Source: Sycobia sp. Sy_11 | Taxonomy: Eukaryota; Arthropoda; Insecta; Hymenoptera; Epichrysomallidae | Assembly (NCBI GenBank): GCA_018907035.1 | Contig: JACCIC010000125.1 | Location: forward strand, 1,600,514 to 1,664,513 | Length of the DNA: 64,000 nucleotides | Reading direction: 5' to 3' | In this document: one piece after another, positions 30,796 to 64,000 of the stretch | How the letters are laid out: each line of letters opens with the position of its first letter | Numbering within the stretch: position 1 is the stretch's first letter | Made by a program: the position numbers and the translations under genes | Notes under the pieces: model-generated | Told to the model about the DNA's origin: nothing | The model's input: the letters and a program-made list of their open reading frames with translations, nothing else | Database searches by the model: none

Positions 30796-30840
30796 ATAAG
30801 TTTTAATCACTCAGTTCGATTTTACGCAGCATACAACAAC

Positions 30841-31560: not shown

Positions 31561-31584
31561 TCAAAGGCATATTGATTAGTAGCA

Positions 31585-31790
31585 TAATACATTGAATGGA
31601 AATTACGATATCGAATACAATTAGCATGAAAACGTTAAATCTAATACTAAAGAAGCAAGTAGGTTTCTTATCGGCTGAAATTTTACAATAGGTTAGATTC
31701 GTTCAAGAATTTGAGTAAAATCACGAAGCTATTCTCTTAATCTTAGAAGTGAAACTGGAAGAATTTATTAAAAAATATAATCATTTGATA
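31585..31790 (+). pseudogene. Polinton fibre-like protein (relic 2), fragment
   Basis: NGNYDIEYN at about 31595 matches the 'DGNFDIENKRL' block of the protein at 59568-59993, and some coiled-coil-like sequence follows. The collagen-like Gly repeat is not visible. Stops interrupt it. Confidence 0.5.
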
Positions 31791-31879
31791 ACGAACGTAA
31801 CGAAGCATGATACAGACACAAATAATATCTACTATCGTCAAACATTTGAAGAACTATACAAATCTGCACGTCGTAGATA

Positions 31880-33062: not shown

Positions 33063-33079
33063 TATAAGCGAAAAAAATA

Positions 33080-34358
33080 TCAGGTATGTGAATAAGTCTT
33101 TCCCGTTTTTTTTTCAAATTTTGAGCCTTTATTGTGAAAAAATGGTTATAAATGAATTATTGAAAGTATTGGCCATCGCTAGCTACAACTTTTTCCCATC
33201 TTTCTGGCAACATACGAATCCCGTTGCGAAAAAATTCGACCGGTTTGGCCTCTATCCAGTCATCCACCCATTTTTTGGCTTCCTCGTAGGAATGGAAGTG
33301 CTGGTCAGCCAGGCCATGCGTCATCGATCTGAAGAGATGGTAATCAGACGGAGCAACGTCTGGACTATACAGCGGGTGGGGTAGGACTTCCCATTTGAGC
33401 GTTTCTAAGTATGTTTTCACCGGCGGTGCAACATGTGGGCGAGCATTGTCATGTTGCAAAATAACTTTGTCGTGCCTGTCGGAGTATTGTGGCCGTTTTT
33501 CTCGCAGTGCGCGGCTCAAACGCATCAATTGTCGTCGATAGACCTCGCCTGTGATCCTTTCATTCGGTTTCAGAAGCTCATAGTAAACCACACCTAGCTG
33601 GTCCCACCATATATAGAGCATGAGCTTGGCGCCATGAATATTTGGCTTGGCCGTCGATGATGATGCATGGCCGGGTAGTTCCCATGATTTTCTTCGCTTC
33701 GGATTATCGTAACGTATCCACTTTTCATCGCCAGTCACGATACGATGCAGAAAACCCTTTCTTTTATGTCGCTGAAGCAGCTGTTCGCAAGTGAAAAAAC
33801 GCCGTTCGACGTCTCTCAGCTTCAGTTCGTACGGCACCCAATTTCCTTGCTTTTGGATCATTCCCATGGCTTTCAAACGCTTGGAAATGGTTGTTCGGTC
33901 AACTCCCAATGCTTCAGCAAGTTCTTCTTGCGTTTGACAAGAATCTTCATCAAGCAAATTCTCGATCTTCAAAGATTTGCGGCCGCCCGGAACGCTCCTT
34001 GTCTTCCACGTCGAAATCACCGCTTTTGAAGCGTCGAAACCATCCGCGAACACCTGAATCATCGACACAACCTTCTCCATAAGCCTCCTGAAGCAATCGA
34101 TACGTCTCGGCAGCAGATTTCTTCAAATTGAACCAATAAAGTGAAACTTCCCGCAAATGACGTCGACTCGGCTCAAATTTCGACATTTTCACGATATCAA
34201 AAATTTATGATGCGAAAAAATTTTAACTAATGTGTTAGTATGGAATTGTTGACATATGAATAAGCTTTGATTATGACATATGTAACCATTGAATACTCGC
34301 ACAGTATTGGTGGCGCCATCTCTTACAAAAAACGGGAAAGACTTATTCACACCCCTAA
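33080..34358 (-). mobile_element. Nearly intact mariner transposon
   Basis: Terminal repeats share GTGTGAATAAGTCTTTCCCG (the left copy has ATGTGAATAAG) and are flanked by TA at 33078-33079 and 34359-34360. Length 1279 bp is full size. It is nested in the same integrase as the mariner ending at 33062, separated by 17 bp. It carries a transposase with one frameshift. Confidence 0.93.
33157..34192 (-). pseudogene. Mariner transposase, single frameshift
   Basis: The minus-strand frame starts at ATG 34192 (MKMSKFEPSRRHLREVSLYW) and stops near 33950. The overlapping frame 34080-33157 carries the rest: EELAEALGVDRTTISKRLKA (helix-turn-helix), IVTGDEKWIRYDN (first Asp), LQHDNARPHVAPP (second Asp) and YSPDVAPSDYHLF (third Asp). 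All three catalytic residues of the D-D34D triad are present, and the protein ends WEKVVASDGQYFQ. One shift near 33955-33965 is the only clear lesion. An N-terminal region of about 80 codons precedes it. Confidence 0.9.
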
Positions 34359-35290
34359 TAGGACATACGTGGAATAGACGAATGATTTTCTAGAAATCAT
34401 TCGTTACTCTAAGGAGCAAAAGATTTTCCTTATTTATTCACTGTCATTGATATATTTTAAAACTTTGCAGGGGTCGTTCCAGTAAGCTTAAAGTGTGTCA
34501 GTGATATTACTATGCCTATGAATAATATATTGCAACAAGGACGAGAACAAACTGATCAAGGAAAAAAATTTTAGAATTCGCACTTTCAAAGTGAAAAAGT
34601 ATAAGATAAATCTATATTTTTCACAGAGTAATCTTTATGCAAGCATATGTAAATGATTTAATTGTTAAAAATGCAATGTGGATATAATTCAGTAAACAAC
34701 GAAACTAAATGGATGGATTTAGAATTATTATTTATTGAATTAATTAAATTTTTATTTTTATTATTTTTGTGTATTGATGTAATAATGTTAATGTATATAT
34801 TGATATTGTTACGTATTGTTTTCGATTGATTTGATTGGACTGTAAGATCAATGAAAAAAATATTTATTAATTTGTATACAAGCAGTCGACAAAAGTACAA
34901 TTAAAGTATTTTAAATGGATGGATATTCTACCAGATTTATACGAAGTTTATAATTCAAGAAATCGTCAAAATATAGGAATTGAGCATACAAATGTCATTC
35001 TAACAAATGAAAAAGCGATAAAGAAATATTTTCCAATCAAAAAGATGACTATGTGAAAAATAAAATAAAAAGTTGGAGATAATTTACAAATAAGTAAAAT
35101 AAAAAATATTTTTGAATAATAATATATACCAAACTGGTCAACTGAAATTTTCACAATAATAAGAGTTGTAAAGACTAATTTAATAACCTACCACATTGAG
35201 ATTATTATGATAAATCTATTTCTGGTGGTTTTTATGAGAGTTAAATTCAATAAACTAAGTATCCTCAAATTTATCTAGTTGAAAAAAAAA

Positions 35291-35312
35291 AATATATATA
35301 TATATATATATC
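35291..35312. repeat. (TA)n microsatellite ending the Polinton relic
   Basis: A short TA repeat lies exactly where similarity to the integrase stops, before the next mariner. Confidence 0.9.
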
Positions 35313-48179: not shown

Positions 48180-49330
48180 AATGCTTGCCCATATACTGTA
48201 TACTGAAAGCGAGTTATTTTTCTTTGCCGCTCCCACACCTTGCATCCTCTTAGTTTCGATCGAGGATAATATCTATGCGTTTGTAAAAGGGAGTGAGTAT
48301 GGAAAACCAGAGTACAAGTATCTATTTTGAAAGAGGCCCACTTCTCGGAAAAGCATGGGAAAGGGTCGGAATAGAGGCAGACACTGGTGCAAGTGAGGTA
48401 GACCGTTGTCAATCAGTATAATCTGCTTAAAGTCATAATGCACTTTGCGTTGGTGGTTATGAATGTCTATCGTTATAGAAAACAGGTACACCAATACTGA
48501 AAGCGACTTATTTTTCTTTGCCGGGCTCACGCCCCCCCTCCCCCCTGCACCCTCATTAGTATAATCCGCTTACCTGTTCTAATGCGCTTGCCGCAGATGC
48601 ACGTGCAAGACCGAGGTGAACTCATCAATTAGGATAACTATAACCAAGATGATTTTCTTTTTCTTTGTAACTCTCTAGATTTGTATCTTGTTGATTTCGA
48701 CCGAGTATAATATCCTTGCGATTGAAAAGAAGGGAGTGACTGCGGGAAACCAACGTATAGTTCGATTTTCGAAAAGGTACACTGTTTGGAAGGAGCATAT
48801 GAAAGCGGGTCTGACGAGAGGCGAGCACGTGCACCTCTTGACCAACTGACTGAGGTTAACTCATCAATTAGGGTAATGCGCTTTCCGTTGATGGTTATAA
48901 ATGTCTATTGTTATAGCTAACACGGGAGACAATACGATATACTGTAAGCAAGATCATGTTTCTATTTTTCTTTGTCACTCCCTCGCTTTAAATCTTTACG
49001 ATTTCGGTAGAATACAACATCAATGCGATTGGAAATCCAAAGGAGTGACTGTGGGAAACCAGCATATAGGCGTTCTATTTTCAAATGGTTTATTTCTTGG
49101 CAGGAACATGGAAAAGTAGGTCGGAGGAGAGGCGAACACGTGCGCCTCTCGATATACTGACCGAGGGTGACTGATCATATAGTTTAATCCGCTTATCGTT
49201 AATGGTTATAGATGAGTATTGTTATAAGGAACAGGTGAGATCATATTAAATGCTGGAAGCGAGGTATTTTTTCTTTATTAGTGCTACGCTTTCTCGCTCG
49301 AATAAAGAAGAACGTGAAACCGCCTAAAAT
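48180..49330. repeat. Degenerate tandem repeat, about 300-bp unit, four to five copies
   Basis: Phrases such as CTGAAAGCGA followed by TTATTTTTCTTTGCC recur at about 48199, 48493 and 49252, with weaker copies near 48655 and 48950. Each unit also contains GGGAGTGACT and CCGAGG.GA-type phrases. Open frames across it are not consistent between copies, so it is not coding. It lies just left of the first gene of the young Polinton and may be part of that element's terminal or regulatory region. Confidence 0.7.
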
Positions 49331-49439
49331 CATAGATCATACGAGATAGACAGGTCATTAGAAAGATTATAGCGAGCGATTGTGGGGAAAAATTTTGTCT
49401 TTGCTAGGCGCACGCTTAGCTCATTATTGCGTTTGGAGT

Positions 49440-49880
49440 GATACAATTTCCACCAATGACGAGTAACGTACGCTTCACCGAGTCTCAGAGGGAGGAGAAA
49501 ATTTGTCTTCCTCCACCAATGAGGAATAATATACGCTTTGCCGTGGCTGAGAGGCAGGAGGTTACAATTTTCATTTGGTCCATCAGAAAAATCTAACCGA
49601 TCACCATACAAGTAAGTGGTGGGAGGGGGATGGATTATCAAGGAGGGAGGAGAAAACTTGTGCTCCAGCACCAATGAGAAAAATTTTCTTGCATCAAAGT
49701 AGAAGGGGTGAACCATCCTTCCCATAAGATAGTAAACGAAGGCGGTTCTTCTTCTTTTTTTTAACCAATAGAAACGTTTTCTCATAAAAGGTCAGCACTG
49801 GAAAACTGTATAAAAGCGGAATCGCAGTCAGTTTTTCCATCACAATCTGCCTTCAAATTTCAAAGATTAATAATATTAAA
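49440..49880 (+). promoter_or_regulatory. CCAAT/TATA promoter of the RS-rich gene
   Basis: Four CCAAT boxes lie at 49453-49457, 49516-49520, 49671-49675 and 49765-49769; three share the flank CACCAATGA. TATAAAAG is at 49809-49816. A start site about 25-33 bp downstream (49835-49845) would leave a leader of about 50 nt before the ATG at 49891. Purine-rich GGGAGGAG phrases recur between the boxes. Confidence 0.65.
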
Positions 49881-49890
49881 AATTAGAAAA

Positions 49891-50687
49891 ATGAAGGTAG
49901 CTGTGAGCACGGCAGGCAGCAGCAGAAGCAACGGCAACATCAACAGCAACAGCATCAGCACCGGGAAGCGGCTGCCTGCTGTGGAAAAGGCTCCCCGAAG
50001 CAGGGGGAAGTACTTGAAATCAATCGACCTGTTTGGGGAGGAAGAACATGAGGAGGAGGATGCGCGGCCGACGACACCCATTTCAATTGTTGCAGCGTCA
50101 CTGACAAGGGCTGTAACGCCCTGCCTTGAAGAAGAGGCAAGGAGCAGATTTCCAGGCACCGCAACCGACTGGAAAGCGCTCTATCGAAGAGCGCAGGAGA
50201 TGACGGAAGCCATCCGTCAAGCGGTCAAATTCGCGGAATTATTCGAAAAGCTAGATGGAGGTAAGGAAAATAATAATTTGTTATAATATTCTTCTATTTT
50301 AAATATATTTATTTATATATAATTTATACAATATATTATATAATATAAATATTAAATAATATATTTATTTATATATATATAAAATATATTTAATTTTATA
50401 TTTAATTAATATTAATATGTATGATTTTTTGTTTATCTGTTATAGGGACGAAGAATGGAAGCGATGGGCATCGCAAACGGTCAAGGAGCCGTTCGGTGAG
50501 GGAGGGAAGAACACGAAGCCGTCCTAGAACGCCGAGGATGACGCAGCATCACAGCCGCAGCCCATCCATCGCAAGTATGCGATATTCAAGCTGCTCGAGC
50601 GTTGAGGAAATCAACGCCGAACTTCCCCCAGCGCAGCCAAGGATAGTGCAAGATGTAAGATTAGAAAAAAAAATGCAATTAAATTGA
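49891..50687 (+). CDS. Spliced RS-rich protein, function unknown
   Basis: Exon 1 is 49891-50260 and exon 2 is 50446-50687, joined by a 185-bp AT-rich intron with GTAAGG donor and TTATAG acceptor; the join keeps frame and gives 203 codons. The N-terminal part has Ser/Asn-rich and acidic segments (GEEEHEEEDARP), followed by a likely helix (ALYRRAQEMTEAIRQAVKF). Exon 2 encodes an Arg-Ser domain (RKRSRSRSVREGRTRSRPRT) and ends with an amphipathic tail. RS domains usually mediate protein-protein or RNA contacts in splicing, or act as basic nucleic-acid-binding tails in viral proteins. It sits left of the Polinton genes under a CCAAT/TATA promoter, and a decayed homologue lies at 40925-41599. It may be element cargo or a host-derived gene. 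I do not recognise its family. Confidence 0.7.
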
Positions 50688-50756
50688 ATAATATTGAATA
50701 ATAAGTATATTTATATGTAATATGTATATGTAATATGTATAGATAAAAATAAAAAA

Positions 50757-51232
50757 ATGTATGAAAATATTAAAGAAAGTGTATTGTAAAAGAAAATAAA
50801 TAAAAATAACTAAAGAAATGGAAAAAACAAAATTATGATGTTTTACCTTTTATCCTACCTTTCCTCATTGAATAAAGAACGTACATTAATAATAATTAAA
50901 TTAATTAACAGTAATAATTATATAATAGTAGATTTATAATATATAATAATAGTAATGTATGAAAAGATATGAATATATATTATTCAATATATATATTCAA
51001 TATATGAATAAAAATGTATGAAAATATTAAAGAAAGTGTATTGTAAAAAAAAATAAGTAAAGAAATGTGAAAAAACAAAATTATGATGTTTTACCTTTTA
51101 TCCTACCTTTCCTCATAGAATAAAGAACGTACATTAATAATAATTTAATTAATTAACAATAATAATTATATAATAGTACATTTATAATATATAATAATAG
51201 TAATGTATAAAAATATATGAATATAAATTATT

Positions 51233-51285
<53 letters not shown>

Positions 51286-51500
51286 ATATATTCAATATAT
51301 GAATAAATTGAATGAAAAATTACAGAAAGTGTATTGTAAAAAAAATAAATAAAAATAAATAAAGAAATGGAAAAAAACAAAATTATGATGTTTTACCTTT
51401 TATCCTACCTTTCCTCATAGAATAAAGAACGTATATTAATAATTTAATTAATTAATAATAATAATTATATAATAGTACATTTACATTATCTCTTCTCAAC
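50757..51500. repeat. AT-rich tandem repeat, three copies of 250-300 bp
   Basis: The phrase TTTTACCTTTTATCCTACCT starts at 50841, 51089 and 51391, giving periods of 248 and 302 bp; flanking sequence in each copy is very similar. A (TA)n run at about 51236-51280 expands the second copy. The first copy carries several AATAAA signals that could end the RS-rich transcript. Confidence 0.9.
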
Positions 51501-51599
51501 AAAAAAAATAATTTCATCATAATTAATAAAATAATAATATCATTAATTAAAATAAATTGAAACAGTTTTTGTATTCAAGAATAGTATCTAAAACATTTT

Positions 51600-51960
51600 T
51601 TTTTATTTTTAAAAAATTGATAGTATCAAATTTTTTTCCTTCATTTAAAAAATTATTTTTTCATTTATTTACTATTCAGTTATTTTTATTTTATTAAATT
51701 ACTTCATTATTCTTTGACTTATTTTTTTTTTTTATTTTTAAAAAATTGATAGTATCAAATTTTTTCATTCATTTAAAAAATTATTTTTTCATTTATTTAC
51801 TATTTAGTTATTTTATTTTATTAAATTACTTCATTATTTTGACTTATTTCTTTTTAGTTTTAAAAAATTGATAGTATCAAATTTTTTTTCATTCATTTTT
51901 AAAATTGTTTTCATTGATTTACTATTTATTTTTTATTTTATTAAATTACTTCAATATATT
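51600..51960. repeat. Second AT-rich tandem repeat, three copies of about 125 bp
   Basis: TTGATAGTATCAAA (a small palindrome-like core) recurs at 51617, 51747 and 51868, each followed by TTTACTATT and TTATTTTATTAAATTACTTC. Between this repeat and 52170 the DNA is AT-rich with no gene seen. Confidence 0.88.
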
Positions 51961-52170
51961 TTTTTTTAAATTATTTAAAAACTAAAAAAAAAAAAAAATT
52001 ATAGGAATAATATAATATAAAAATTTATATTATACAATAATATTAATAATTGAAATAAAAATTACAAATCTGATTTTTTTCAAGATATATAGTATTTATT
52101 AATATAATTTTTTTACAAATTTCATTTTACAATAATGCTATTTTTAGTCAATTTCATCTCGTCCATATTT

Positions 52171-52916
52171 TTAACTCAAATAATTTTGCAACCATGTACG
52201 CATTATTGTGACATTCCGTATCGCACACATTGGTATACTTCGGCTGCATAATGGATGGTTGTGGCAAATCACATTTTGACCTTCACTCTGCAATGTTTGC
52301 AATGATGGACAATGTAGCTCCTCCTCCATATCAGATATAATTCTGGAATTAGAAAAAAAGTATAAGAAAGTATAAAAAAGTATGAAAAAAGTATGAAAAA
52401 GTATGAACAATGTATGAACATTGTATGAAAATATACTTTTCCATAAAGTTTATTTTTTATTACTTTCTGAAATATATACATGAAATAAATATAAAGATGA
52501 TTATAAGTATGCAAATTACTTACATATTTGGAAGAATGGTTGTCAACCATTCCTTCTTCTCTCGTCCCTTGACATATAATTTTTTTACTCCAGTACAGCA
52601 TATCTCCAATGTTCTTTGAAGCCTATGGTATGGAATGTCACCAGTATCCCATTCAAGCCCATGGTAATCACGCTGCAACCAGTGAACTGTTTTTTTTTTC
52701 ATTCCATGTCAAGTCACTCCATGGAAATGGTGGCTTAAAGATATACACTGTAGGTAGTGCACCTCTTTCCATACCTAATAAACTAAATTCCTTTAAAATG
52801 AAAGTTTGCGGGCCTCTTGTCTGAAAACCCTGCATGTCGCAGAAGAATACTTTATCTTTTGGACACTTCAGAATATTTTTTCTAAACATCACTTCGTATT
52901 CCCTCACTCTAGCCAT
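52171..52916 (-). pseudogene. Spliced probable nuclease-fold gene, one homopolymer frameshift
   Basis: On the minus strand, exon 1 (52916-52524) starts MARVREYEVMFRKNILK and contains VFFCDMQGFQT, a hydrophobic-acidic strand like the first strand of an RNase H-like fold, then FKPPFPWSDLTW. A run of ten A (52690-52699 as T) shifts the frame; the other frame continues with HWLQRDYHGLEWDTGDIPY and VKGREKKEWL. A GTAAGT donor, a 181-bp intron and a TTCCAG acceptor join it to exon 2 (52342-52171), which has CPSLQ, CHNHPLC and AIRNVTIMRTWLQNYL. I recall similar anonymous ORFs in insect genomes; the Cys/His pattern and fold suggest a nuclease-like protein, but this is inference. The frameshift could be a sequencing error in the homopolymer. 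Confidence 0.65.
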
Positions 52917-53612
52917 TCTCAGTTTATTTCTATTTACCGATAGTTAGAAGTATTGATTATGAATGCAAGTTATATGCTTATGCATTCATTTTTATAATAG
53001 TTCTCCCCCTCCTCGTGAAATGAGAACTGTCCTACAATTGGCTGAGAAAAATAAAATAGATTCGATTGGATGATGAAGATTGAATTTTTTTTGGTTGGTG
53101 ACAAGTCAATTCATCCCCTCTATTCTTAGAGAAAGTCACTTACGATTGGGCGTGGGAGAAGAAAAGCATTTGTACGTTGAGAAAGCAAGTAACGGTAGAT
53201 ATTTAGATGTTCCTAAACTCTACACGCCCCCCTCGTAGGAAATCACGTTTATGATTGGACGTTCAAGGAGAAAGGATGATATTTTGATTGGTTTTAGTCT
53301 ACATATATTCTTCTCATTCTAACACGCTATTGAATGTTTTCTATCGTAGGCTTGACATTGTGCTTCCACTTCTGTTTCCCCTTCTCCTTATTTTTCATTT
53401 TCCTTTAAAAGCGAGACAGTTTCTTGGAGGAACACAGTTTTTACACCACAGTTAAATAAGTTCAGTTTCATCTTTCTTATTTTTTCTATTGCCAGTTATA
53501 CAAGTGTGTTGTATTGTAACAGTGAATAAAGACGCAATATTAAGTGAAGTCTGATATATTTTAAATATTTTTTAAAATATATGTTATTAATTCACGTTAA
53601 AATAAAAGTAAA
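52917..53612. promoter_or_regulatory. Divergent promoter between nuclease-like gene and PolB
   Basis: Five ATTGG motifs (CCAAT on the minus strand) lie at 53037, 53065, 53145, 53254 and 53287. A TATAAAAA element on the minus strand (52989-52996) is placed for the leftward gene. TTTAAAAG at 53403-53410 is placed for the rightward PolB, followed by a leader of about 170 nt. All five boxes share one orientation. The arrangement suggests one CCAAT array serving both genes. Confidence 0.6.
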
Positions 53613-56600
53613 ATGGCTTATCTTTCGTCTGTCGAATTTCAAGTGAAACAACTTCGTGATATTTACGAACGTGTCAGTGAATTGAACGTAATCGAACTCA
53701 AGAATTATTCAACAATAACTGAACAGGCTTTGTTAGAGCTGAGAGAATTTGGAAAAAAACAAGGTCTCTCTCGAGCAGAAAATCAAAAATGTTTAACATC
53801 TCTTATTCATTTGTCATGTTTACAAGCAGGATTTCGGTTCTATCTTGATAGTGCAGCACCAATCGGAGGTAGTCTAATCCCTATCGAGTCAGCTAAAGTT
53901 GAATGGCGAGATGTTCAATCAGCTTTTAAAAATCGAATAAGGACAGGTGTTGTGGTTAATTTAAAACATGTGGACATTTTAAGTTTCTTGCTCGATGCAC
54001 AGAAGCTCTTTGAGGATAAAGTACAAGCATGCTTACAAGAATATGGTGCAATAAAAGTAAATTCTGATTTTATGTCAGAATTTTCCATGCAGAAAAATGG
54101 AGAGGAAACAACAGATATTAAATATTTCACAAGTATGAGTGCTACAGTATACATGTCTACTGATTTAGGCAAATGGTATGAGGAACATATTAAGGACCCT
54201 CTTCTTACTCATCTAGAAGAATTTCAGGAAAAAGATTCTGGATGGACATTAAAAAGTATTATAAGTTTGTGCATAAACATGAAAAAATTTTCACCTCACA
54301 AGGGAAGATCATTTATTCCTCTGCCAAAGTTCATAGCATCAAAAAGAGCATGTATCAATGTCCATAACACTGATAATCAATGCTTTAAATACGCTATTCT
54401 TTCAGCATTACATCCAAATGAAAAAAATCCTCAAAGAGTTCATAATTATGATAAATATGCAAACGAGTTGAACTTTGGTGATATAGAATTTCCTGTAAAA
54501 CTAAAAGATGTTTCCAAATTTGAAAAATGGAATAATATTTCAGTAAATGTTTATATGCTTAGAAAGTATGGATCGAAATATGAAGTATCACCTTGTCATA
54601 TTTCATTAAACAAGAAGGAGAAACATGCAAATCTTCTTCTCATTCAAGATTTCTACATCGATGAGTATGAAGAAAATAATATTTCTGATGATAATGGAAG
54701 TGTGCCTAAATTCCATTACGTTGCGATTAAAAGTATATCCAGACTTATAGGTTCACAAGTCAGCAAGACTCACCAAAAATTATACCATTGTGAAAGATAT
54801 TTACAACATTTTTATAGTGAAGAAAGGCTAGAAAATCATGAAAATGTTTGTAAAAATATTAACGATTGTCGAATAAATTTACCAAACTCATCGAATAATA
54901 TTTTAAAATTTGAAGATTATAATAAAGGGGAAAAAGTGCCTTTTGTAGTTTATGCTGATTTTGAATGCTTATTAAAACCTACAGAAAATGAAAATGCTTT
55001 TCAACTCCACCAGGCATACAGTATAGGATTTTATGTAAAATGTAGCTTTGATGACAAATTATCCGTTTACAAAGCATATAGACAGAATAGTGCAGACGAT
55101 GAGACACCCGCAAGTTGGTTTGTGCGTGAATTAAAATCAATTGGTGAGCAGATTGATCATCTCTATAAAAATCCAAAACCAATGAAACTCACAGATGATG
55201 AAGAGTTGACTTTTAAATGGTCGACCGTTTGCCATATATGTCGAAAACCATTTTTGGATGAGCAACTGGTAGTGCGAGATCACTGTCATTTAACAGGAAG
55301 GTAAATTTAATATAATAATTTAAAAGATAATTTAATATAATAAAGAAAAAGAAATTATTTTGCTAAATTAATTTTTTTCTCATTAGATTCAGAGTTGCTG
55401 CCCATAATTCCTGCAATTTGAACTATAAAGACTCGAAATTTATTCCAGTAATTTTTCACAATCTCAATTATGATACACACTTTATTTTAAAAGAAATTGG
55501 AACTTCTACACTGATGAAAGGTCGAGTTAACTTAATACCTCATAACAAGGAAAAATATATTTCCTTCACAAAGTATATGGATGACTGTGATGTAAGTTTT
55601 AGATTCTTAGATTCTTGGCGATTTTTGCCATCATCTTTAGAGAAACTTGCGTCTTATCTAGATAATGTACCAATAGCAATACAGGAATTTCAATTAGATG
55701 GATACTCAAACGAAAATATTGATCTTCTTAGACGTAAAGGAATATTTCCTTACGATTTTGTAGATGGACTTGATAAATTGATAACTACAAAACTGCCGTC
55801 GAAAAATGAATTTTATAATAAATTGACAGATTCAGGTATTAGTGAGGAAGACTATAAGCATGCTGTTCAAGTGTGGGAAAGTTTTAATATAAGAACATTA
55901 GGAGAGTATTCGGACTTATATTTAAAAACAGATGTTCTACTCTTAGCAGATGTCTTTGAAAGTTTTCGAGACACATCTATTAAAGCATACGGCTTATGTC
56001 CTGCACATTTTTACACTACTCCAGGATTAACATTTGCAGCAGCTCTAAAAATGACGAAGGTAGAATTAGAGCTTCTAACAGATATTGACATGTTATTATT
56101 TATTGAATCAGGCATTCGAGGTGGAATAAGTCAGTGCTGCAATCGATATGCAAAGGCAAATAATCCATACATGGGGCCGACATATGATGAAAAAAAGAAG
56201 ACAAAGACACTTTTATATTATGATATAAATAATTTGTATGGATGGGCGATGGTGCAGCATTTACCAGTTGGAAAATTTAAATGGGTTGATTATGAGTCAA
56301 ATCGTGACTTTTTCAATACGCCATCAGATTCGGACGTAGGTTATATTGCTGAAGTAGATTTGGAGTATCCTGAGGAAATACATGATATTCATCGTGATTT
56401 ACCTTTCTGTGCCGAGCATCGTACACCACCTGACTCAAAACAAAAGAAACTTCTAACTACTTTGAACGATAAAACAAGGTATATAATTCATTATCGCGCC
56501 CTTAAGCAAGCGCTCGACAATTGTCTTCGATTGAAAAAGTACATAGAATTTTGAGCTTTGAACAGAAACCTTGGTTAAAATCATATGTTGTACTAAATAC

Positions 56601-57970
56601 TGAAAAGCGAAAGCATGCAAAGAATGAGTTTGAAAAACTCTTTTATAAACTGTTAATTAATGCTGTTTATGGAAAATGTATTGAGCGAGAGCGATCTCGC
56701 GTTGATGTACGGTTAGTAAATAAATTTACTGGCCGATATGGAGCAGAAGCACGCATAGCTCTACCTAATTATCATAGCTGTGCAATTTTTGATGAAAATT
56801 AAGTTGCTATTCAGCTGAAAAAAACAAGTGTAACAATCAAAAAGCCTATATACGTTGGGCTTTGTATCCTCGATTTATCAAAAACATTAGTCTACGATTT
56901 TCACTACTCTTACATGAAACAGCGAGTGGGCGAAAAGTGTAAGCTCTTGTATACTGACACTGATAGCTTGATATATGAAGTAGAGGACATTGATATGTAT
57001 CAAATAATGAAAGAAGATATTCATAGATTTGATACTTCTGATTATGATGAAAATAATCAGTATGGAATTCCACGCGAAAATAAAAAAATTCCTGGACTAA
57101 TGAAAGATGAATGTAATGGAAAGATCATGATGGAATTTATTGGTTTACGAAGTAAAATGTACAGTATTTTAGTTGATGGAGGAGGAACAGTAAAAAAGCT
57201 AAAGGATTAAATCGGGTGTAGTGAAGAAATCAATTACATTCGATGATTATAGAAGATGCCTGGAAGACCTCGTAATTATACAACGAGAGCAGTGCACCAT
57301 TCGCTCAAAATTACACATAGTGCATACAGAAAAACAGAAAAAAATTGCCCTAAGTCCATTTGATGATAAAAGATACTTATTGCCTAATACTACAGACACA
57401 TTACCTTGGGGTCACTATAAAATCCTAGAAGAGCAAATGTTGAAAGCTGCAAGTAAGGTAGAGAGGGAAATAATGGGAAGTACAGGTCAGCAAATCGAAG
57501 AGGAGGGTAAGGATAATGTGAGGGGATATGATGAGTCCAATGGAAAAAGAGCTCAAGTAGGTGTAGCTACTGGAGAAGAAGAGAGGGAGAATACAATCTG
57601 CAATGAGATTCGAGTCACGGCAGATGTACATGCAGAACAAGAGAGTAGGGATAAAGTAACTAATGAAAATCAAGTTATACGAGAAACAGTGACGCTCTAT
57701 AGTAATCAAGGTGAACCAATAAGGATTGAGTATAATATATCTGACGAACTAATGCACGAATGGAATCCTGAAGAAATTTTGAAAGTCTTGGAAGGGGTAA
57801 GCTCAGTTGAAGCTGAGGGAAGGGATGCACTCCGTGAGGCAATGGAAGAGGCAGAAATTATGGTGGGGAATCAGCTATATGAAGAGATGGAGGATGACGA
57901 GGAACTCATTCGAGCAGTTGAAGAGTATGAGAATTATCTGCCATCTCCAAAGAAAACAAGACTAATCTAA
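53613..57970 (+). pseudogene. Polinton protein-primed DNA polymerase B, spliced, recently inactivated
   Basis: Exon 1 is 53613-55300; a GTAAAT..TTAG intron (55301-55386) follows; exon 2 restores frame. A roughly 450-residue N-terminal region precedes the exonuclease motifs VVYADFEC, FHNLNYDTHFIL and YSDLYLKTDVLLLADV. The zinc-type motif CHICRKPF..DHCHLTGR spans the intron. Polymerase motif A is YYDINNLYGWAM, motif B KLLINAVYGKC and motif [12 protein letters not shown]. It ends LPWGHYK plus an acidic tail of about 165 residues to 57970. Lesions are one missing base near 56535, a TAA at 56800-56802 in frame, and shifts near 57190-57215. The enzyme would copy the element's DNA from a protein primer. 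Exon 1 alone is a 562-codon clean frame, so decay is recent. Confidence 0.92.
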
Positions 57971-58070
57971 TAAGGTTAGATTCGTAGTTAATTTTTTCTT
58001 TTAAAAAAAAAAATTAATTTTTTTTTACTATGTTAGAATTAAAAAGAAAAATTTTTTTCTTTTCTTTAGA

Positions 58071-58376
58071 ATGGACTTAGCTACTCTTAACAGGATATCT
58101 GAGAGCGAGTTCATGCCGCGGAAGAAATGTACAGAATTGGAGAAAAATCAGCAGTACATGGTGACTGCTCTTAAGCAAGTCTCTACAAGATATGGCACCA
58201 AAGTCGTTGCGGAGCTGGACGATAACTTTCAAATATTTTTGCCGCAAAAGATATCTTCGGCATTATTAAAAGAAGAAGAATTTTTCATAAATATGGCTAA
58301 CAAAGCAAATAAGCTTTGTTTATTTATAGTGTATCAAGGCGGTAGTTGTTTTAAGTTTAACACTTCGACTTCTTAA
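58071..58376 (+). CDS. Small protein, possible ssDNA-binding OB-fold
   Basis: A 101-codon frame starts at ATG 58071. It has the pattern of a short beta-rich domain: QQYMVTALKQVSTRYGTKVV, then ELDDNFQIFLPQKIS, then LCLFIVYQG. Small proteins of this form next to PolB in virus-like elements resemble the OB-fold ssDNA-binding type (K/Y..T.YG...V..L.....FLP), and that is my best guess. A polypyrimidine tract ending TTTCTTTAG abuts the ATG, so the leader may be spliced. It lies 100 bp after PolB on the same strand and faces the convergent integrase. Confidence 0.55.
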   Translation: MDLATLNRISESEFMPRKKCTELEKNQQYMVTALKQVSTRYGTKVVAELDDNFQIFLPQKISSALLKEEEFFINMANKANKLCLFIVYQGGSCFKFNTSTS

Positions 58377-58551
58377 ATATTAATAAAACACAGATAGATT
58401 AATTTCTTATCATTATTTATTTGTAAAAAAAAGAATTAAAACATGTATAACTTAATTACATAAATAAATATTATAATCATAATACACTGTCTTTCATATT
58501 TAATAACTAGTGAACTTCCACATATCCATATATTTTACTTTTATATTGCTT
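58377..58551. terminator. Convergent 3' ends with AATAAA signals
   Basis: AATAAA occurs on the plus strand just after the stop (58382-58387) and at about 58462-58467. The minus-strand integrase ends at 58552, so both transcripts finish in this 175-bp gap. Confidence 0.4.
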
Positions 58552-59505
58552 TCATTTAATTTCTTTTTTATTTATCCAACTATTATGCTCACTATTGAAT
58601 CCTAACCATTTAACATATACGCGGTTACCACTCCGTTTTAGCACTTTTTCTACTAGATAAATTTCAGAGAACTTAGTCTTTTGAATTTCAGTTTCATAAA
58701 AACCTCCAGATACAGGCTTATCGTAATAATCTTTAACGTGATAAGTTACTGGATCAGTTTTTACAATTCTTGACATTGTAAAAATTTCAGTAGACCAATT
58801 AGGTGTATAGCCTTTTTCAAAAATATGTTTTATTTTACTTATTCGTACATTATCTCCGACATTGTATTTCGGTTTTTTCCTTGCTATCATCTCAATTGAA
58901 AAACGCTTCTTCACCTCCCTTTCGTTTTCTTGGCTTACATTTTCAGGCTCAATTCCTATTGTTCGATGTTTTCTTGAATTGTAAGCTTTCAGTAAATCTG
59001 GTAGGATACCTATCCATTTGTAGTTTCCTTGTTTGCTGAATTGTATCCACATTGCATTTTTTAAGGTTCTATTAAATCATTCACAAATACTTGCATGAAG
59101 ATTACTGTGTGAAGAGTATAGATTTATCTTATACTTTTTCATGAGGTTTTGGAAGTGTGAATTGTAAAATTCTTTTCCTTGATCAGTTTGTAGATTTGAT
59201 GGTACTCTTCCATGTTTCAATATCGTATTCATAGCGAGAGTAACATCGTTACCATTCTTTGACTTTACTGGTTTAGCCCAAGCATACTTCGAAAATAAAT
59301 CTATAACAGTGAGTAAGTAACGAAACCCTTTATTCTCCTTAGAGTAGGATATCATTTCTACAAGATCTGCTTGCCAAGTTTCATCTATACCACGTATATC
59401 ATATTTTCTTCGCTTATATCTGCGACGGGCAGGTTTGTATAGCTCTTCAACCACTTTTTGTTTTATTTCCTGCTGACTTTGCCTTTGCTGATCTTGTCGG
59501 TGCAT
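58552..59505 (-). pseudogene. Polinton integrase with chromodomain, one nonsense codon
   Basis: The frame from 59505 reads a basic N-terminus (YKPARRRYKRRKYDIRGIDE), then the retroviral-type catalytic core with D in WQADLVEM, D in LQTDQGKEF and E in HASICE. A TGA at 59077-59079 comes immediately after that Glu; the same frame then continues (FNRTLKNAMW, PDLLKAYNSRKHRTIG, PNWSTEIF) and ends in a chromodomain (YLVEKVLKRSGNRVYVKWLG..W). The enzyme would insert the element into chromatin, the chromodomain guiding site choice. The stop is consistent with a C-to-T change at a CpG. No other lesion was seen. About 318 codons in total, a usual size. Confidence 0.93.
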
Positions 59506-59567
59506 TTGTTTTCCTGTTAATATCTATTATAATAGCATTCAAATTCGAAACTGATTTTGTCATAGTA

Positions 59568-59993
59568 TCATTTAAACGAGTATGTGAGTTTCGATTCCAG
59601 TTCTGATTTATCCTGATTGGTTTTCATAAGATTTTTATCGAAATTATTCATTCTTTCTTCCAATTTAAATCGATTTTCATTATGTGTATAATATTTTTGA
59701 TAAAGATCTTTGAATTTCTCTTCTGTTATCAAGCCATTTTGTTCATGATATTTCTCATTTTCTTTTAGAATTTCATTAATTTTGGAAAATACAGTATTTA
59801 GTTCCTTCTGCAAGATTACATATAACGTTTTTACACAAACTGCATCAGTACTTTCAATAGCTTCACCAACATTACAAAGTCGTTTATTTTCTATATCAAA
59901 ATTGCCATCTGTTGTGAAATTGTATCCAACGCCTGGAGGACCTTGACTCCCTTTCGAGTCTCTCAAATTTCTTCCAAACAAGTCGAGAGTCAT
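59568..59993 (-). CDS. Fibre-like virion protein with collagen-type start
   Basis: A 141-codon frame starts at ATG 59993. Residues 1-25 include GSQGPPGVGYNFTTDGNFDI, a short Gly-x-y stretch, followed by ENKRLCNVGEAIESTDAV. This 'DGN.DI.NKRL.NV......DAV' block is the trimeric fibre/spike pedestal motif seen in many large DNA viruses and adintovirus-like elements. The rest is predicted helical coiled coil (KELNTVFSKINEILKENEKY). It probably forms a trimeric appendage on the capsid. It lies between integrase and the coiled-coil protein, and a related fragment lies at 31585-31790. Confidence 0.65.
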   Translation of the reverse strand: MTLDLFGRNLRDSKGSQGPPGVGYNFTTDGNFDIENKRLCNVGEAIESTDAVCVKTLYVILQKELNTVFSKINEILKENEKYHEQNGLITEEKFKDLYQKYYTHNENRFKLEERMNNFDKNLMKTNQDKSELESKLTYSFK

Positions 59994-60026
59994 GATGATA
60001 CTGATTGAATAATAGACGAATGTGTA

Positions 60027-60950
60027 TTAATATATAATTCCTATTTCACGCAGTTCTTCAATAATTGAATGGATTTCATTGATATGATTGTTATTTCCAA
60101 CTGATTGTTCGGCAATTAATAATCTTAGTCTCTCAACAAGCTCATTCGGATCATCCCAGTACACTAACTCTATTGAAGAATCTTTCTTTGCTATTTTATA
60201 TTTAGGTAGGTGACCTCCCCCTTTTTTTTTTTTTTTTGTATGACTGGTGCGAAACATTGGTGCAATGATGTTGAAATATTTTCTACTCTTCGATGAGCGT
60301 ATAGATTCATCTTTACTATGTTTTTTCCGATGAGCACTTGTTGCTTCTAAAATACTGCGATAATTTTTACGATCTGCTGCACTTATTAATGTGTCATCTG
60401 GTTCTTTTTTAATAAGTAGCTCCATTAGTCCATTACTTTTAGGATAAGTTAAATCTTTCACTTTTATTTTATTATCATCAAATATAGTTTCAGAATCGCC
60501 AAGCATGTATATACCTCCAATATTTCTTACTCCATATATGTTATCAAATTTACTGTGGCTTTGATCTAAAATATTCGATTTAACATCGTCTTCATGCATA
60601 GATTTGAATGACGAATTCATCATTGAGTTATCTAATGAGGCAAAATCATCATCGGAATCATAATCTTTCATGGAAGCTGAGCGAATATTATTATCTATCA
60701 TAAAACTCAACTTTTTTCGGGATCTAGTTGGTTTTCTAATGCTCTGATCATTCGAAATGAGATTAGAAGACTGTACACTATTGGATTCGACAAGCTTTTC
60801 AAGTGGTGTAATGACAGGTTTCAATGTATCTCCTACAACTTTTTCGAGATTCTCTCTCTCCTGTTTCAATAGTGCAGATTTTCTTTTAATAGCTTTACGA
60901 GCTTGCATCAACTCGCTAAGAATACTCTTTTCTTTCTCAATGTCCGACAT
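60027..60950 (-). CDS. Conserved Polinton coiled-coil protein, function unknown
   Basis: A 307-codon frame starts at ATG 60950. The N-terminus is a coiled coil (KEKSILSELMQARKAIKRK). The middle is Ser- and acid-rich, with a Lys-rich segment at residues 235-247 encoded by a homopolymer near 60225. The C-terminus (SSIELVYWDDPNELVERLRL, then SIIEELREIG) is a block I recall in many insect Polinton ORFs. No enzyme motif is present. It overlaps nothing and follows the ATPase by 46 bp in the same direction. A relic homologue lies at 30841-31560. A scaffold or virion-internal role is only a guess. Confidence 0.75.
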   Translation of the reverse strand: MSDIEKEKSILSELMQARKAIKRKSALLKQERENLEKVVGDTLKPVITPLEKLVESNSVQSSNLISNDQSIRKPTRSRKKLSFMIDNNIRSASMKDYDSDDDFASLDNSMMNSSFKSMHEDDVKSNILDQSHSKFDNIYGVRNIGGIYMLGDSETIFDDNKIKVKDLTYPKSNGLMELLIKKEPDDTLISAADRKNYRSILEATSAHRKKHSKDESIRSSKSRKYFNIIAPMFRTSHTKKKKKGGGHLPKYKIAKKDSSIELVYWDDPNELVERLRLLIAEQSVGNNNHINEIHSIIEELREIGIIY

Positions 60951-60996
60951 GGTGTCGTGTTGCTGTGTAAAATTGAACTGAGTGATTAAGATTTTT

Positions 60997-61689
60997 TTAA
61001 TTTCTTTTTATTGCAAAACAGTCAAAACCTTTTCTGTATCTACCAGCATCCATTGTTCTATCTTTATCAATAACAGCAAATCCATATTTATCATTTTTCC
61101 AGCATTCAGAACAAAAATTACGAAACTCGTTGAAAGACAGATCAGTATTGACATGGTCATCATAAATATGTTTTAAATTCACATCATCTTGTCGATAAAT
61201 TACTAGCATATTAATATTATCTTTAATAAGATGTTTTGGTATATGAGCATATGACTGGCATAGGTAGAAGCAGTCTACACTTTTATGTCTCCCCATACAG
61301 AAAAATGCTCTGACGTTATCTTGCCTCTCACAAGCTACATCATCAAAAATCATAATTGAATTGGGCAATGCTTCATCCGGTGATATTACAGATTCCTGTT
61401 CACTAAACGGGAAATATGAGATGCCTTCGACTGGTTCTATGACTTTTTTGAGAAATTGATACTTTGGTTGATTTAAGGATTTTGAATAAACATACACATT
61501 CTCGAATCTAAGACCATTGGGATGAGTGATTAAAGCTAATAAGCTATTTGTTTTTCCGCAGTTTGATGGACCGCAGAATACTGCTCGTATACTATCTGGT
61601 AGCAATTCTCCGTGTCGCTTCCTTCTTTTTTCCTTTCCAAAATCAAAGTTAGCGACAGGGAGTTTCACGTTCTGCTCAGTGAAATGCAT
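60997..61689 (-). CDS. Polinton genome-packaging ATPase (FtsK/HerA type)
   Basis: The 230-codon intact frame starts at ATG 61689. The Walker A motif is FCGPSNCGKTNSLLAL (residues about 38-53) and Walker B is SIMIFDDVACE near residue 115. A CQSYAHIPKHLIKDNINML block follows, and the C-terminus is DKDRTMDAGRYRKGF. This family pumps DNA into capsids in Polintons, adenovirus-like and nucleocytoplasmic large DNA viruses. It heads the minus-strand block and is divergent from the lipase-like gene 96 bp away. The C-terminus is matched by the relic at 30445-30795. Confidence 0.93.
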   Translation of the reverse strand: MHFTEQNVKLPVANFDFGKEKRRKRHGELLPDSIRAVFCGPSNCGKTNSLLALITHPNGLRFENVYVYSKSLNQPKYQFLKKVIEPVEGISYFPFSEQESVISPDEALPNSIMIFDDVACERQDNVRAFFCMGRHKSVDCFYLCQSYAHIPKHLIKDNINMLVIYRQDDVNLKHIYDDHVNTDLSFNEFRNFCSECWKNDKYGFAVIDKDRTMDAGRYRKGFDCFAIKRN

Positions 61690-61785
61690 GTTGATATGAC
61701 AAAGTCTAGTTTATCATTAACTGAAGTAAATATATAAATGTTGATTTTATATTTTCGATCATCAGTTATAATTTGACTGCCAAAG
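61690..61785. promoter_or_regulatory. Short divergent intergenic promoter
   Basis: Only 96 bp separate the divergent ATPase and lipase-like genes. The sequence is AT-rich with TATATAAATG at about 61731-61740. No CCAAT box was seen, unlike the two other promoters of the element. Confidence 0.4.
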
Positions 61786-62580
61786 ATGATTGAGCATAAA
61801 ACTCGGAAGCATTCAAAAAAGGAAGGACGTGGATTGCTCGATAGAGTAATCAACAATTTACCTATCGAAATGCATCTTCCTGGTTATCAATACTGTGGCC
61901 CTGGAACTAAATTAACAAAGCGATTAAAAAGGGGTGATCCGGGAATAAATGAACTAGATAAGGCATGTAAAGAATATGACATTGAGTACTCTAATAAAAA
62001 CAGTAATCGTAAAGTGGCTGACATAAAGCTTGCTAATAAAGCTTGGCAACTGATTAAAGCTAAAGATGCTAGTCTTGCGGAGAAAGCCTCAGCTCTAGCG
62101 GTTGCCAGTGCTATGAAATTAAAGGCAAAAACTGGAATGGGGCTGAAATTCAACAAATTGGTGACAGCAGCGAAAAAATCATTGAAATCAGGTAAACATT
62201 CACGCAAAGTCATACAGTCCGCCTTAAAAGGTGCTCGTCAAGCTCTTAAGAATAGTGGTTGTAAGAAGAAAGTTCTCATTCCACGTGTGATACCCCTTCC
62301 GTCTAAAATTGGCGGAGTTCTTCCTTTCCTTATTCCACTGTTCGCAGGACTAAGTGCAACTGGTGCTTTAGCCGGAGGTGCTGCTGGAATAGCTAAAGCA
62401 GTAAATGATGCTAAAGCTGCTCAGAAAGATTATCAAGAAAGTAAGCGACATAATAAGACGATGGAAGCTATTGCTTTAGGTAAAGGTCTCTATCTGAAGC
62501 CATATAAACATGGAATGGGATTATTTCTCAAACCGCATGTCGGACACGGTCTAATGAAAAGAAAAAAAAACTTCAATTGA
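61786..62580 (+). CDS. Polinton minor virion protein with phospholipase A2-like domain
   Basis: The 264-codon frame starts at ATG 61786. Residues 29-65 contain PGYQYCGPGTKLTKRLKRG, the Ca-binding loop of the parvovirus-type phospholipase A2 domain, and then DKACKEYDIEYS. The family has a His-Asp pair in the second motif; here the position reads Tyr-Asp (TAT), so the catalytic His is missing. A basic region (KKSLKSGKHSRK), a Gly/Ala-rich hydrophobic segment (PFLIPLFAGLSATGALAGG) and a Lys-rich end (KRKKN) follow. In related elements this protein is thought to help membrane passage from within the virion. Loss of the His should abolish lipase activity. Confidence 0.8.
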   Translation: MIEHKTRKHSKKEGRGLLDRVINNLPIEMHLPGYQYCGPGTKLTKRLKRGDPGINELDKACKEYDIEYSNKNSNRKVADIKLANKAWQLIKAKDASLAEKASALAVASAMKLKAKTGMGLKFNKLVTAAKKSLKSGKHSRKVIQSALKGARQALKNSGCKKKVLIPRVIPLPSKIGGVLPFLIPLFAGLSATGALAGGAAGIAKAVNDAKAAQKDYQESKRHNKTMEAIALGKGLYLKPYKHGMGLFLKPHVGHGLMKRKKNFN

Positions 62581-62583
62581 ATT

Positions 62584-62940
62584 TTGCCAAATCGTCCACT
62601 AACAAACTTTGATCTTATAAAATATGCACATATATTACAAATTCCACATTTTCGAGGTGTTTACATGAGAAATAGCCTTCCTCGTAATGGACCATGGAAT
62701 AACGAATCTGCCATTGTTAATCTCGATGATTCGCAAAATAAAGGTACTCATTGGGTCAGTTATCGAAAGAGAGGATCTGACGTCACCTACTTTGATAGCT
62801 TTGGTGACCTCAAACCTCCCATAGATCTTATGAAATATTTCAATGTGAAAGAAGTGAAATACAACTATACAAGATATCAGAATTTCGACTCATTCATTTG
62901 CGGTCATCTTTGTCTTCGTTTTTTAACTGAAAGTCTATAA
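62584..62940 (+). CDS. Adenain-like maturation protease, ATG absent
   Basis: An open frame of about 118 codons begins PNRPLTNFDLIKYAHILQIP, a typical start for the Polinton cysteine protease. The catalytic His is in GTHWVSYRK, an Asp in TYFDSFGD and the Cys in DSFICGHLCLRF. The frame opens at TTG 62584, only 4 bp after the preceding stop; no ATG is found before residue 29 (ATG at 62668). Either a start codon has mutated, or translation relies on another mechanism. The protein would cut capsid precursors. The active-site residues are intact. Confidence 0.82.
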   Translation: MPNRPLTNFDLIKYAHILQIPHFRGVYMRNSLPRNGPWNNESAIVNLDDSQNKGTHWVSYRKRGSDVTYFDSFGDLKPPIDLMKYFNVKEVKYNYTRYQNFDSFICGHLCLRFLTESL

Positions 62941-62984
62941 AAAGAATTGTCAGATAAAATTTGATCATTTTCGCTCAATCAGTC

Positions 62985-63671
62985 ATGGAAGATAGTTTCA
63001 CTTTGACTCTTTCAGCAAAATCTTCTGTCTTAGAAGCCCAATACTTTCCATCCATTGAATTACCAAAGCATAAAAATTATGTTTTAGGTTTAGTCGAACT
63101 TTTAACCTTTAATTCAATTCCAAATATTGACAATACAAATAATCAACTTCATTTAAAAGGAGAAATTATTACTATCCCCATTGGTAGTTACGAGATTGAT
63201 GATATAAATCAATTTTTATGTAATACATTGAAATCAAAAGGAATTGAATTTTCCTTGAAAGCTAACAATAATACATTTCAAAGTGAAATTAAGTGCAGTG
63301 TTTCGTTAGACCTTAGACCTGAAAAATCAATCGGTCGAGTGTTGGGTTTTACTCCTCGTACTCTCAAAGAAAATATAGAACACCGTTCTGATTTACCAGT
63401 GAAAATATTGAAAATCAACGCACTCAGAGTCGAGTGTAACATTACTGCAGGAGCTTTCATTAACAACCAAAAAGTTCATACTATTCATGAATTCTTTCCC
63501 AGTGTTCCTCCAGGATATAAAATCATTGAAATTCCATCACATGTTATATATCTACCACTTAGTGTTAAGTGCATAGATAATATACAAGTTCGAATTGTCG
63601 ATCAGGACGGCAATCTAGTTAATTTTCGAGAAGAGGAAATCACTGTTAGACTTCATATCAAATCTATATAA
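62985..63671 (+). CDS. Polinton minor capsid (penton-like) protein
   Basis: ATG 62985 is chosen; the frame is open 24 bp farther to a TTG. The 228 residues start MEDSFTLTLSAKSSVLEAQY and are rich in beta-strand patterns. Blocks include HKNYVLGLVELLTFNSIPNI, RVLGFTPRTL and, near the end, YLPLSVKCIDNIQVRIVDQD and EEEITVRLHIKS. The C-terminal 'IVDQDG....F..E.I..RLHI' pattern is characteristic of the single jelly-roll penton of Polintons, which sits at capsid vertices. Length is normal and no lesion is seen. Its stop overlaps the next ATG (TAATG). Confidence 0.8.
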   Translation: MEDSFTLTLSAKSSVLEAQYFPSIELPKHKNYVLGLVELLTFNSIPNIDNTNNQLHLKGEIITIPIGSYEIDDINQFLCNTLKSKGIEFSLKANNNTFQSEIKCSVSLDLRPEKSIGRVLGFTPRTLKENIEHRSDLPVKILKINALRVECNITAGAFINNQKVHTIHEFFPSVPPGYKIIEIPSHVIYLPLSVKCIDNIQVRIVDQDGNLVNFREEEITVRLHIKSI

Positions 63672-63886
63672 TGGGGATGGTTTATAATTCTAGCACACAT
63701 ATAAGTACTCCATCATGGCAATCGACAATCAGTCGATTGAAGAGTTTGAAACCGTTAACACTGAAGAACATTCAGTTCCTACAAAGCCTAGGTCTAAAAG
63801 TTCGTGGAAAAAAAATTAGCTGTATAATTTTCTGCTGCTTTCTGAAAAAAAATGGACGAAATACTAAAAAATTCAATCAGGTGTAG
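63671..63886 (+). CDS. Small conserved ORF between penton and capsid genes
   Basis: ATG 63671 (or in-frame 63677) overlaps the penton stop by one base. The believable part is the first 47 or so residues, with the block LTLKNIQFLQSLGLKVRG that I associate with a tiny protein preceding the Polinton major capsid gene. The remaining residues up to 63886 are low-complexity and overlap the capsid start, so the reading probably ran shorter before a frameshift. Function unknown. Confidence 0.5.
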   Translation: MGMVYNSSTHISTPSWQSTISRLKSLKPLTLKNIQFLQSLGLKVRGKKISCIIFCCFLKKNGRNTKKFNQV

Positions 63887-64000
63887 CATTCGATGAGTCA
63901 ATTGCTCATCATGAAATTCACGCAAATCAACCATACACATCACTAAACTTTGATCATAATGATGAAATTCGCATTTCCATCAAACACCAAGATCTGTGTA
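63852..64000 (+). pseudogene. Start of the Polinton major capsid protein gene, frameshifted, runs off the window
   Basis: ATG 63852 opens MDEILKNSIR and then leaves frame. From 63877 a different frame reads SGVAFDESIAHHEIHANQPY and DEIRISIKHQDLC to the window end, which is the recognisable N-terminus of the double jelly-roll major capsid protein of insect Polintons. The two frames differ by one position, so a one-base change lies near 63860-63876. The rest is beyond 64000. Confidence 0.72.

What the first reader, a model, noticed from the sequence alone, without database searches (positions are those of the whole stretch)
48180..64000. Recently inactivated, virion-coding Polinton with accessory genes
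The element holds replication (PolB, probable SSB), integration, packaging and at least five virion genes in one block. Only about seven small lesions are visible in roughly 12 kb of coding sequence, so it was active not long ago. It may be one member of a live family elsewhere in this genome.
Basis: partly seen in the sequence, partly recalled or inferred. Interest (0 to 1): 0.85.

Follow-up and report, generated by a model that had tools for sequence, protein, structure and literature searches.

The report
Recently dead adintovirus-type Polinton in insect
This stretch of what is probably an insect genome holds most of a virus-like mobile element (an adintovirus or Polinton) that seems to have broken fairly recently, with an older, badly decayed relative nearby; it is a good but ordinary example of a known group, with two uncharacterised split genes at one end.

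Summary
Window 49.9-64.0 kb holds an adintovirus-type Polinton (E1). PolB, integrase, packaging ATPase, phospholipase and protease are confirmed by homology; the ATPase is 71% identical to Megastigmus wasp adintovirus FtsK. Penton rests on position, SSB is unproven, and the capsid gene runs off the window, so terminal repeats are untestable.

The "seven lesions" shrink. One PolB break is a predicted 86-nt GT-AG intron. The stop between phospholipase and protease looks normal: 115 of 120 listed relatives lack a fused protease. Left: one stop and two frameshifts in PolB, one integrase stop, and frame breaks in accessory gene 2 and at the capsid start; some could be assembly errors.

New: a second copy (E2, 30.4-35.3 kb), split by two mariner-like elements and far more decayed (14 stops against 1 in 608 compared codons). 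It shares the integrase TGA at the same codon; recurrence or inheritance is undecided. Two intron-bearing accessory genes gave no family match in limited searches. The own genome could not be searched.

The parts
48200..49280 (.). Degenerate direct repeats of about 300 bp; possible subterminal region of the element, membership not shown
   Evidence: blastn self-comparison, 68.5-73.5% identity among 48214-48484, 48655-48922, 48963-49274
49891..50687 (+). Accessory gene 1: two exons with a predicted GT-AG intron at 50261-50445 (185 nt); Ser/Arg-rich second exon; TATA-like TATAAAAGCG upstream at 49809
   Evidence: ORFs, DNA, splice sites and frame arithmetic; no Pfam match for either exon; no PHROGs match for exon 1 (exon 2 not sent)
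50753..51961 (.). AT-rich tandem repeats, periods of about 248 and 122 bp
   Evidence: Tandem Repeats Finder
52171..52943 (-). Accessory gene 2: frames 52668-52943, 52520-52708 and 52171-52449 with a frame break near a T10 run at 52690 and a predicted GT-AG intron 52523-52343 (181 nt); resembles (recall only) a nuclease-like insect family
   Evidence: ORFs, frames, splice sites, homopolymer list; no homologue of the 91-aa piece among proteins of 50-159 aa, no Pfam match above cut-off for the three pieces
53613..57970 (+). Type B DNA polymerase, broken: predicted intron 55301-55386 (86 nt), frameshift at about 56.5 kb, in-frame TAA at 56800-56802, frameshift at about 57.2 kb
   Evidence: PF03175 E 1.2e-20 and 8.7e-6 on two of five pieces; frames and DNA; no alignment to intact relatives was made
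58071..58376 (+).
   Evidence: ORF; only weak matches; low-confidence model
58552..59523 (-). RVE integrase with C-terminal chromodomain, interrupted by one in-frame TGA at 59077-59079
   Evidence: rve E 1.6e-13, Chromo E 1.2e-4; DNA
59568..59993 (-). Open coiled-coil-like protein (141 aa)
   Evidence: ORF; only below-cut-off Pfam matches
60027..60950 (-). Open protein of unknown function (307 aa), a relative of which is in E2
   Evidence: ORF; tblastn to E2, E 2.6e-16; no Pfam or PHROGs match
60997..61689 (-). A32/FtsK-type genome-packaging ATPase (230 aa), open
   Evidence: PF04665; up to 89% identity to relatives, 71% to Megastigmus wasp adintovirus FtsK
61786..62580 (+). Phospholipase A2-like virion protein (264 aa), open
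   Evidence: PF08398; 79% identity to P0121
62581..62940 (+). Adenain/Ulp1-type cysteine protease frame, open, same frame as the phospholipase and with no ATG before its conserved start
   Evidence: 66% identity over 118 aa to P0140 C-terminus; no Pfam match of its own
62985..63671 (+). Presumed penton protein, open; assigned by position only
   Evidence: ORF; position just upstream of the presumed capsid gene as described in PMC4028283 section 5; no sequence or fold support
63850..64000 (+). Presumed start of the major capsid protein gene with a frame break, cut by the window end
   Evidence: three-frame translation; likeness to Polinton capsid proteins is recalled, not tested
30445..35308 (+). 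E2: second, eroded Polinton copy (ATPase C-part, 307-aa protein, integrase), split by two mariner-like elements
   Evidence: blastn, four main segments 72.6-76.2% identical; tblastn; terminal repeats of the two insertions

Best explanation
E1 is an integrated adintovirus-type Polinton in an insect, probably hymenopteran, genome. When intact, such an element is thought to integrate by its RVE integrase, copy itself by protein-primed PolB, pack its DNA with the A32/FtsK-type ATPase and build an adenovirus-like particle whose maturation uses the cysteine protease; the phospholipase probably aids membrane escape. Those roles are inferred from the families; none was tested. E1 itself is probably no longer autonomous: PolB and the integrase each carry at least one in-frame stop, while the ATPase, phospholipase, protease, presumed penton, the 307-aa and coiled-coil proteins and the 101-aa frame are still open. 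It stopped being maintained recently compared with its neighbour E2.
For: Family matches; 2757 ATPase relatives, with Megastigmus wasp adintovirus at 71% identity among the 120 listed; phospholipase relatives up to 79-80%; protease match. The gene set fits published descriptions of Polintons (PMC4028283, passages and section 5; PMC11071308, passages and section 9) and adintoviruses (PMC11071296, passages). Few lesions: 2 in-frame stops and 2 frameshifts in about 9.4 kb (my sum of the coordinates from PolB to the penton, intron left out), against 14 stops in 608 codons in E2.
Against: Terminal repeats, target-site duplication and nearly all of the capsid gene are not visible. Penton and SSB labels have no sequence support. 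Three of the five PolB pieces have no PolB match in Pfam. The chromodomain is under Pfam's cut-off. No relative was found in viral contigs in three scans. Some frame breaks lie in or near homopolymers and may be assembly errors. The host is inferred only from the few named relatives. Two further frame breaks, in accessory gene 2 and at the presumed capsid start, are not in the 9.4-kb count.
Confidence: 0.85

Rival explanations
1. E1 is intact or nearly so and the frame breaks are assembly errors, so it may be a live provirus.
For: The PolB frameshifts lie near short A-runs of 5-6 and the accessory gene 2 break lies at a T10 run, where long-read assemblies err (recalled).
Against: The PolB TAA and the integrase TGA are not length changes, which is the usual error type; the TGA also occurs at the matching codon of E2. 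A-runs of 5-6 are short for such errors.
Confidence: 0.1
2. The family amplified with an integrase already broken by the TGA, moved in trans by another element (or the TGA is read through).
For: E1 and E2 share the TGA at the same integrase codon, while the other 10 in-frame integrase stops of E2 are not in E1. E2's ATPase scores best with P0001 and E1 among 121 tested. Chance of a coincidence at a random codon is 11/245.
Against: The codon could have been one that turns into TGA by a common CpG transition: 6 of 43 E1 CpG sites read TG in E2, so recurrence is not rare. Only two copies are known. The codon in other relatives was not seen.
Confidence: 0.15
3. The block is kept by the host as a domesticated virion or protein set.
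For: Seven frames (ATPase, phospholipase, protease, presumed penton, 307-aa, coiled-coil and 101-aa) remain open while PolB and the integrase are broken.
Against: A young insertion explains this as well; the presumed capsid gene also has a frame break. No expression or population data.
Confidence: 0.05

Closest known systems
Megastigmus wasp adintovirus (TPA record; FtsK protein P0058)
   Same: ATPase 71% identical over 98% of the query
   Different: Only its ATPase was seen here; its gene order and accessory genes were not available
Adintoviruses (Starrett et al. 2021, paper not held; described in PMC11071296, passages read)
   Same: PolB, RVE integrase with chromodomain-like end, packaging ATPase, protease
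   Different: Hexon match could not be tested; E1 carries two intron-bearing accessory genes for which no family was found in limited searches
Maverick/Polinton elements of hymenopterans (PMC6035795, passages read: wasps and ants)
   Same: Same enzyme set named for hymenopteran genomes; several elements per genome
   Different: In the passages seen, the elements were compared by integrase; no gene-by-gene comparison with E1 was made here

Membership tests
Polinton/Maverick | Type B polymerase, RVE integrase, packaging ATPase and cysteine protease together (PMC4028283, PMC11071308) | tested here: met
Polinton/Maverick | Double jelly-roll major capsid and single jelly-roll penton proteins | tested here: inconclusive
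   Penton by position only, model pLDDT 31.3, no PDB match; capsid gene cut by window end
Polinton/Maverick | Terminal inverted repeats and target-site duplication (recalled) | not testable with these tools
   Right end outside the window; own-genome search did not complete (15 calls)
Adintovirus | RVE integrase with C-terminal chromodomain (PMC11071296) | tested here: met
   rve E 1.6e-13; Chromo E 1.2e-4, but 22.4 bits against a curated cut-off of 25.1, so the chromodomain is met only by E-value
Adintovirus | PolB with N-terminal OTU-like domain (PMC11071296; PMC11071308 section 9) | tested here: inconclusive
   The 567-aa N-terminal piece has no OTU match in Pfam; possible Cys and His motifs only seen by eye
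Adintovirus | Hexon recognisable by BLASTP to known adintovirus hexons (PMC11071296) | not testable with these tools
   Only the presumed first ~50 codons lie in the window

The most novel reading that the evidence does not exclude
An adintovirus lineage whose integrase carries an inherited in-frame TGA directly after the presumed catalytic glutamate (motif recalled), and which still multiplied, either by using another element's integrase or by reading the stop through.
Probability: 0.12. Interest if true: 0.6.

Novelty: new member of a known kind. Interest (0 to 1): 0.3.

Why it matters
It gives a younger and an older copy of related adintovirus-like elements within 34 kb of an insect genome, which lets one compare loss of function gene by gene. 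It also warns that introns in such elements can be mistaken for inactivating lesions, so counts of intact Polintons based on simple reading frames may be too low. If the shared integrase stop proves inherited, it would show that these elements can spread without their own open integrase.

Tried and rejected
A genome-contig scan (66) gave two bacterial MAG loci at 28% identity, taken as remote ATPases and not followed. The accessory gene 2 piece found no homologue, but only proteins of about 50-159 aa that share three 5-residue words could be found. Single-sequence models of the presumed penton and the 101-aa protein were too poor to search, so no fold search was run. Inverted-repeat scans showed the 25 longest of 36 and of 117 pairs, all AT-rich; the rest were not seen. 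CCAAT boxes upstream of accessory gene 1 and PolB: 4 and 5 against shuffle means of 1.1 and 1.0, reached by 30 and 0 of 1000 shuffles; other places in the window reach 5 too, so I do not lean on it. A slippery A-AAA-AAC at the end of the phospholipase was considered and dropped because the protease lies in the same frame, not the -1 frame. In the E1-E2 count (39) I kept 5 of the 8 blastn segments and dropped three (62-71% identity, one of them out of gene order). Literature searches; the main adintovirus paper (Starrett et al. 2021) is not held. For PMC8363768, PMC6035795 and PMC11071296 I read passages; PMC4028283 passages and section 5; PMC11071308 passages and section 9; the rest only as listings.
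Full report
What is there. Stop-to-stop frames over 44-64 kb and Pfam scans show a block of virus-type genes between about 49.9 kb and the window end. Two of five PolB pieces match PF03175 (E 1.2e-20 and 8.7e-6, over successive parts of the profile); the first, fourth and fifth pieces do not, and are assigned by position and recalled motifs. The integrase matches rve (E 1.6e-13) and, below Pfam's own cut-off, a chromodomain (E 1.2e-4). The ATPase matches PF04665 (E 6.7e-8) and the phospholipase PF08398 (E 3e-10). The ATPase has 2757 relatives at E <= 0.001 among 2845 candidates, the best 89% identical; one of the 120 listed is named as an adintovirus, Megastigmus wasp adintovirus, 71% identical. 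Of the 240 relatives listed name an organism: Megastigmus, Trichogramma, Leptopilina or Glyptapanteles, all Hymenoptera (classification recalled). That is the only basis for calling the host a probable hymenopteran.

Protease and phospholipase. The frame 62581-62940 had no Pfam match but is 66% identical over 118 residues to the C-terminal part of P0140, a fused phospholipase-protease. Of the 120 phospholipase relatives listed (of 2325 found), 115 are 243-321 aa long and lack the protease motif, and 5 (375-388 aa) continue into the protease. I looked at the C-termini of 11 of the 115; some of the rest may be cut by contig ends. The stop between the two is therefore probably the common state and is not counted as a lesion. 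How the protease is then translated is open: no ATG precedes its conserved start in the window.

Introns, not lesions. The PolB break at 55.3 kb has a GTAAAT donor at 55301 and a pyrimidine-rich acceptor ending at 55386; the 86-nt length shifts the frame exactly from that of the first piece to that of the second. The same holds for accessory gene 1 (50261-50445, 185 nt) and accessory gene 2 on the minus strand (52523-52343, 181 nt). These are predictions without transcripts. Each would keep the frame by chance one time in three.

Lesions that remain. In PolB: a frameshift at about 56.5 kb, a TAA at 56800-56802 and a frameshift at about 57.2 kb; in the integrase a TGA at 59077-59079. Accessory gene 2 changes frame at a T10 run, and the presumed capsid start changes frame near 63.87 kb. 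These calls rest on the reading frames and recalled conservation; no alignment to intact PolB, integrase or capsid relatives was made. The PolB frameshifts lie near short A-runs, so assembly error is not excluded for them.

A second copy. Comparing 48-64 kb with the whole window found an unreported relative, E2, on the plus strand at 30445-35308: ATPase C-part, the 307-aa protein and the integrase, with four main segments 72.6-76.2% identical in DNA. Two insertions with terminal repeats at 31877-31912/33030-33065 and 33087-33111/34327-34351 split it; the name mariner for them is recalled. Using 5 of the 8 aligned segments, E2 has 14 in-frame stops and E1 has 1 over 608 compared codons, and 27 indel events separate them. 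Mismatches are spread over codon positions (130 of 620, 94 of 629, 141 of 625), so much of the difference looks like decay without selection, chiefly in E2. Of 121 ATPases (E1 plus the 120 listed), E2 scores best with P0001 and E1 (85.9 and 83.2 bits; next 81.3; median 60.5). As the 120 were chosen for likeness to E1, this places E2 near E1 but does not prove one family.

The shared stop. E1's integrase TGA is matched by a TGA at the same codon of E2. E2 has 11 stops in 245 compared integrase codons, so a random coincidence has a chance near 4.5%; if the codon was a CpG codon, recurrence is likelier (6 of 43 E1 CpG sites read TG in E2). I cannot tell whether it was inherited. The modest third-position excess is also odd if E1's lineage stayed active for as long as E2 decayed; the local alignments favour conserved stretches, so I leave this unexplained.

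Age. E2's stop density (14 in 608 codons) is far above E1's (2 in about 3140 codons, my sum of the frames from PolB to the presumed penton). 'Recent' holds in this relative sense; I give no date.

Accessory genes and promoters. Accessory gene 1 starts at 49891 and PolB at 53613; both follow a TATA-like word with TAAAAGCG (49811 and 53406), which occurs 3 times on the plus strand and once on the minus strand of the window. This suggests, weakly, one element. Neither exon had a Pfam match, and exon 1 had no PHROGs match; a wider protein search was not made. The 91-aa piece of accessory gene 2 had no homologue in the protein search, within its limits of length and shared words, although its residues recall an insect nuclease-like family (recall only).

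Verdict. A real, relatively young, probably inactivated adintovirus-type Polinton with an older relative nearby: a new member of a known kind.

Noticed in passing
window 30445-35308: Second, eroded copy related to E1 with two mariner-like insertions; shares the integrase TGA with E1.
   Followed up: yes
window 32019-32921 and 33157-34122: Two open frames of 300 and 321 aa inside E2 that look like mariner transposases (recalled; no family search run), each within a pair of terminal repeats.
   Followed up: partly
window 6384-6584: Weak match to the protease (30% identity over 67 columns, E 0.003), perhaps a remnant of another mobile element.
   Followed up: partly
window 44864-45217: Minus-strand fragment matching a zinc-binding reverse-transcriptase domain (PF13966, E 1.1e-7), a retrotransposon remnant left of the element.
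   Followed up: no
phospholipase relatives: 5 of 120 listed relatives fuse phospholipase and protease in one frame; in E1 they share a frame but are split by a stop.
   Followed up: partly
window 50753-51961: AT-rich tandem repeats of about 248 and 122 bp between the two accessory genes.
   Followed up: no
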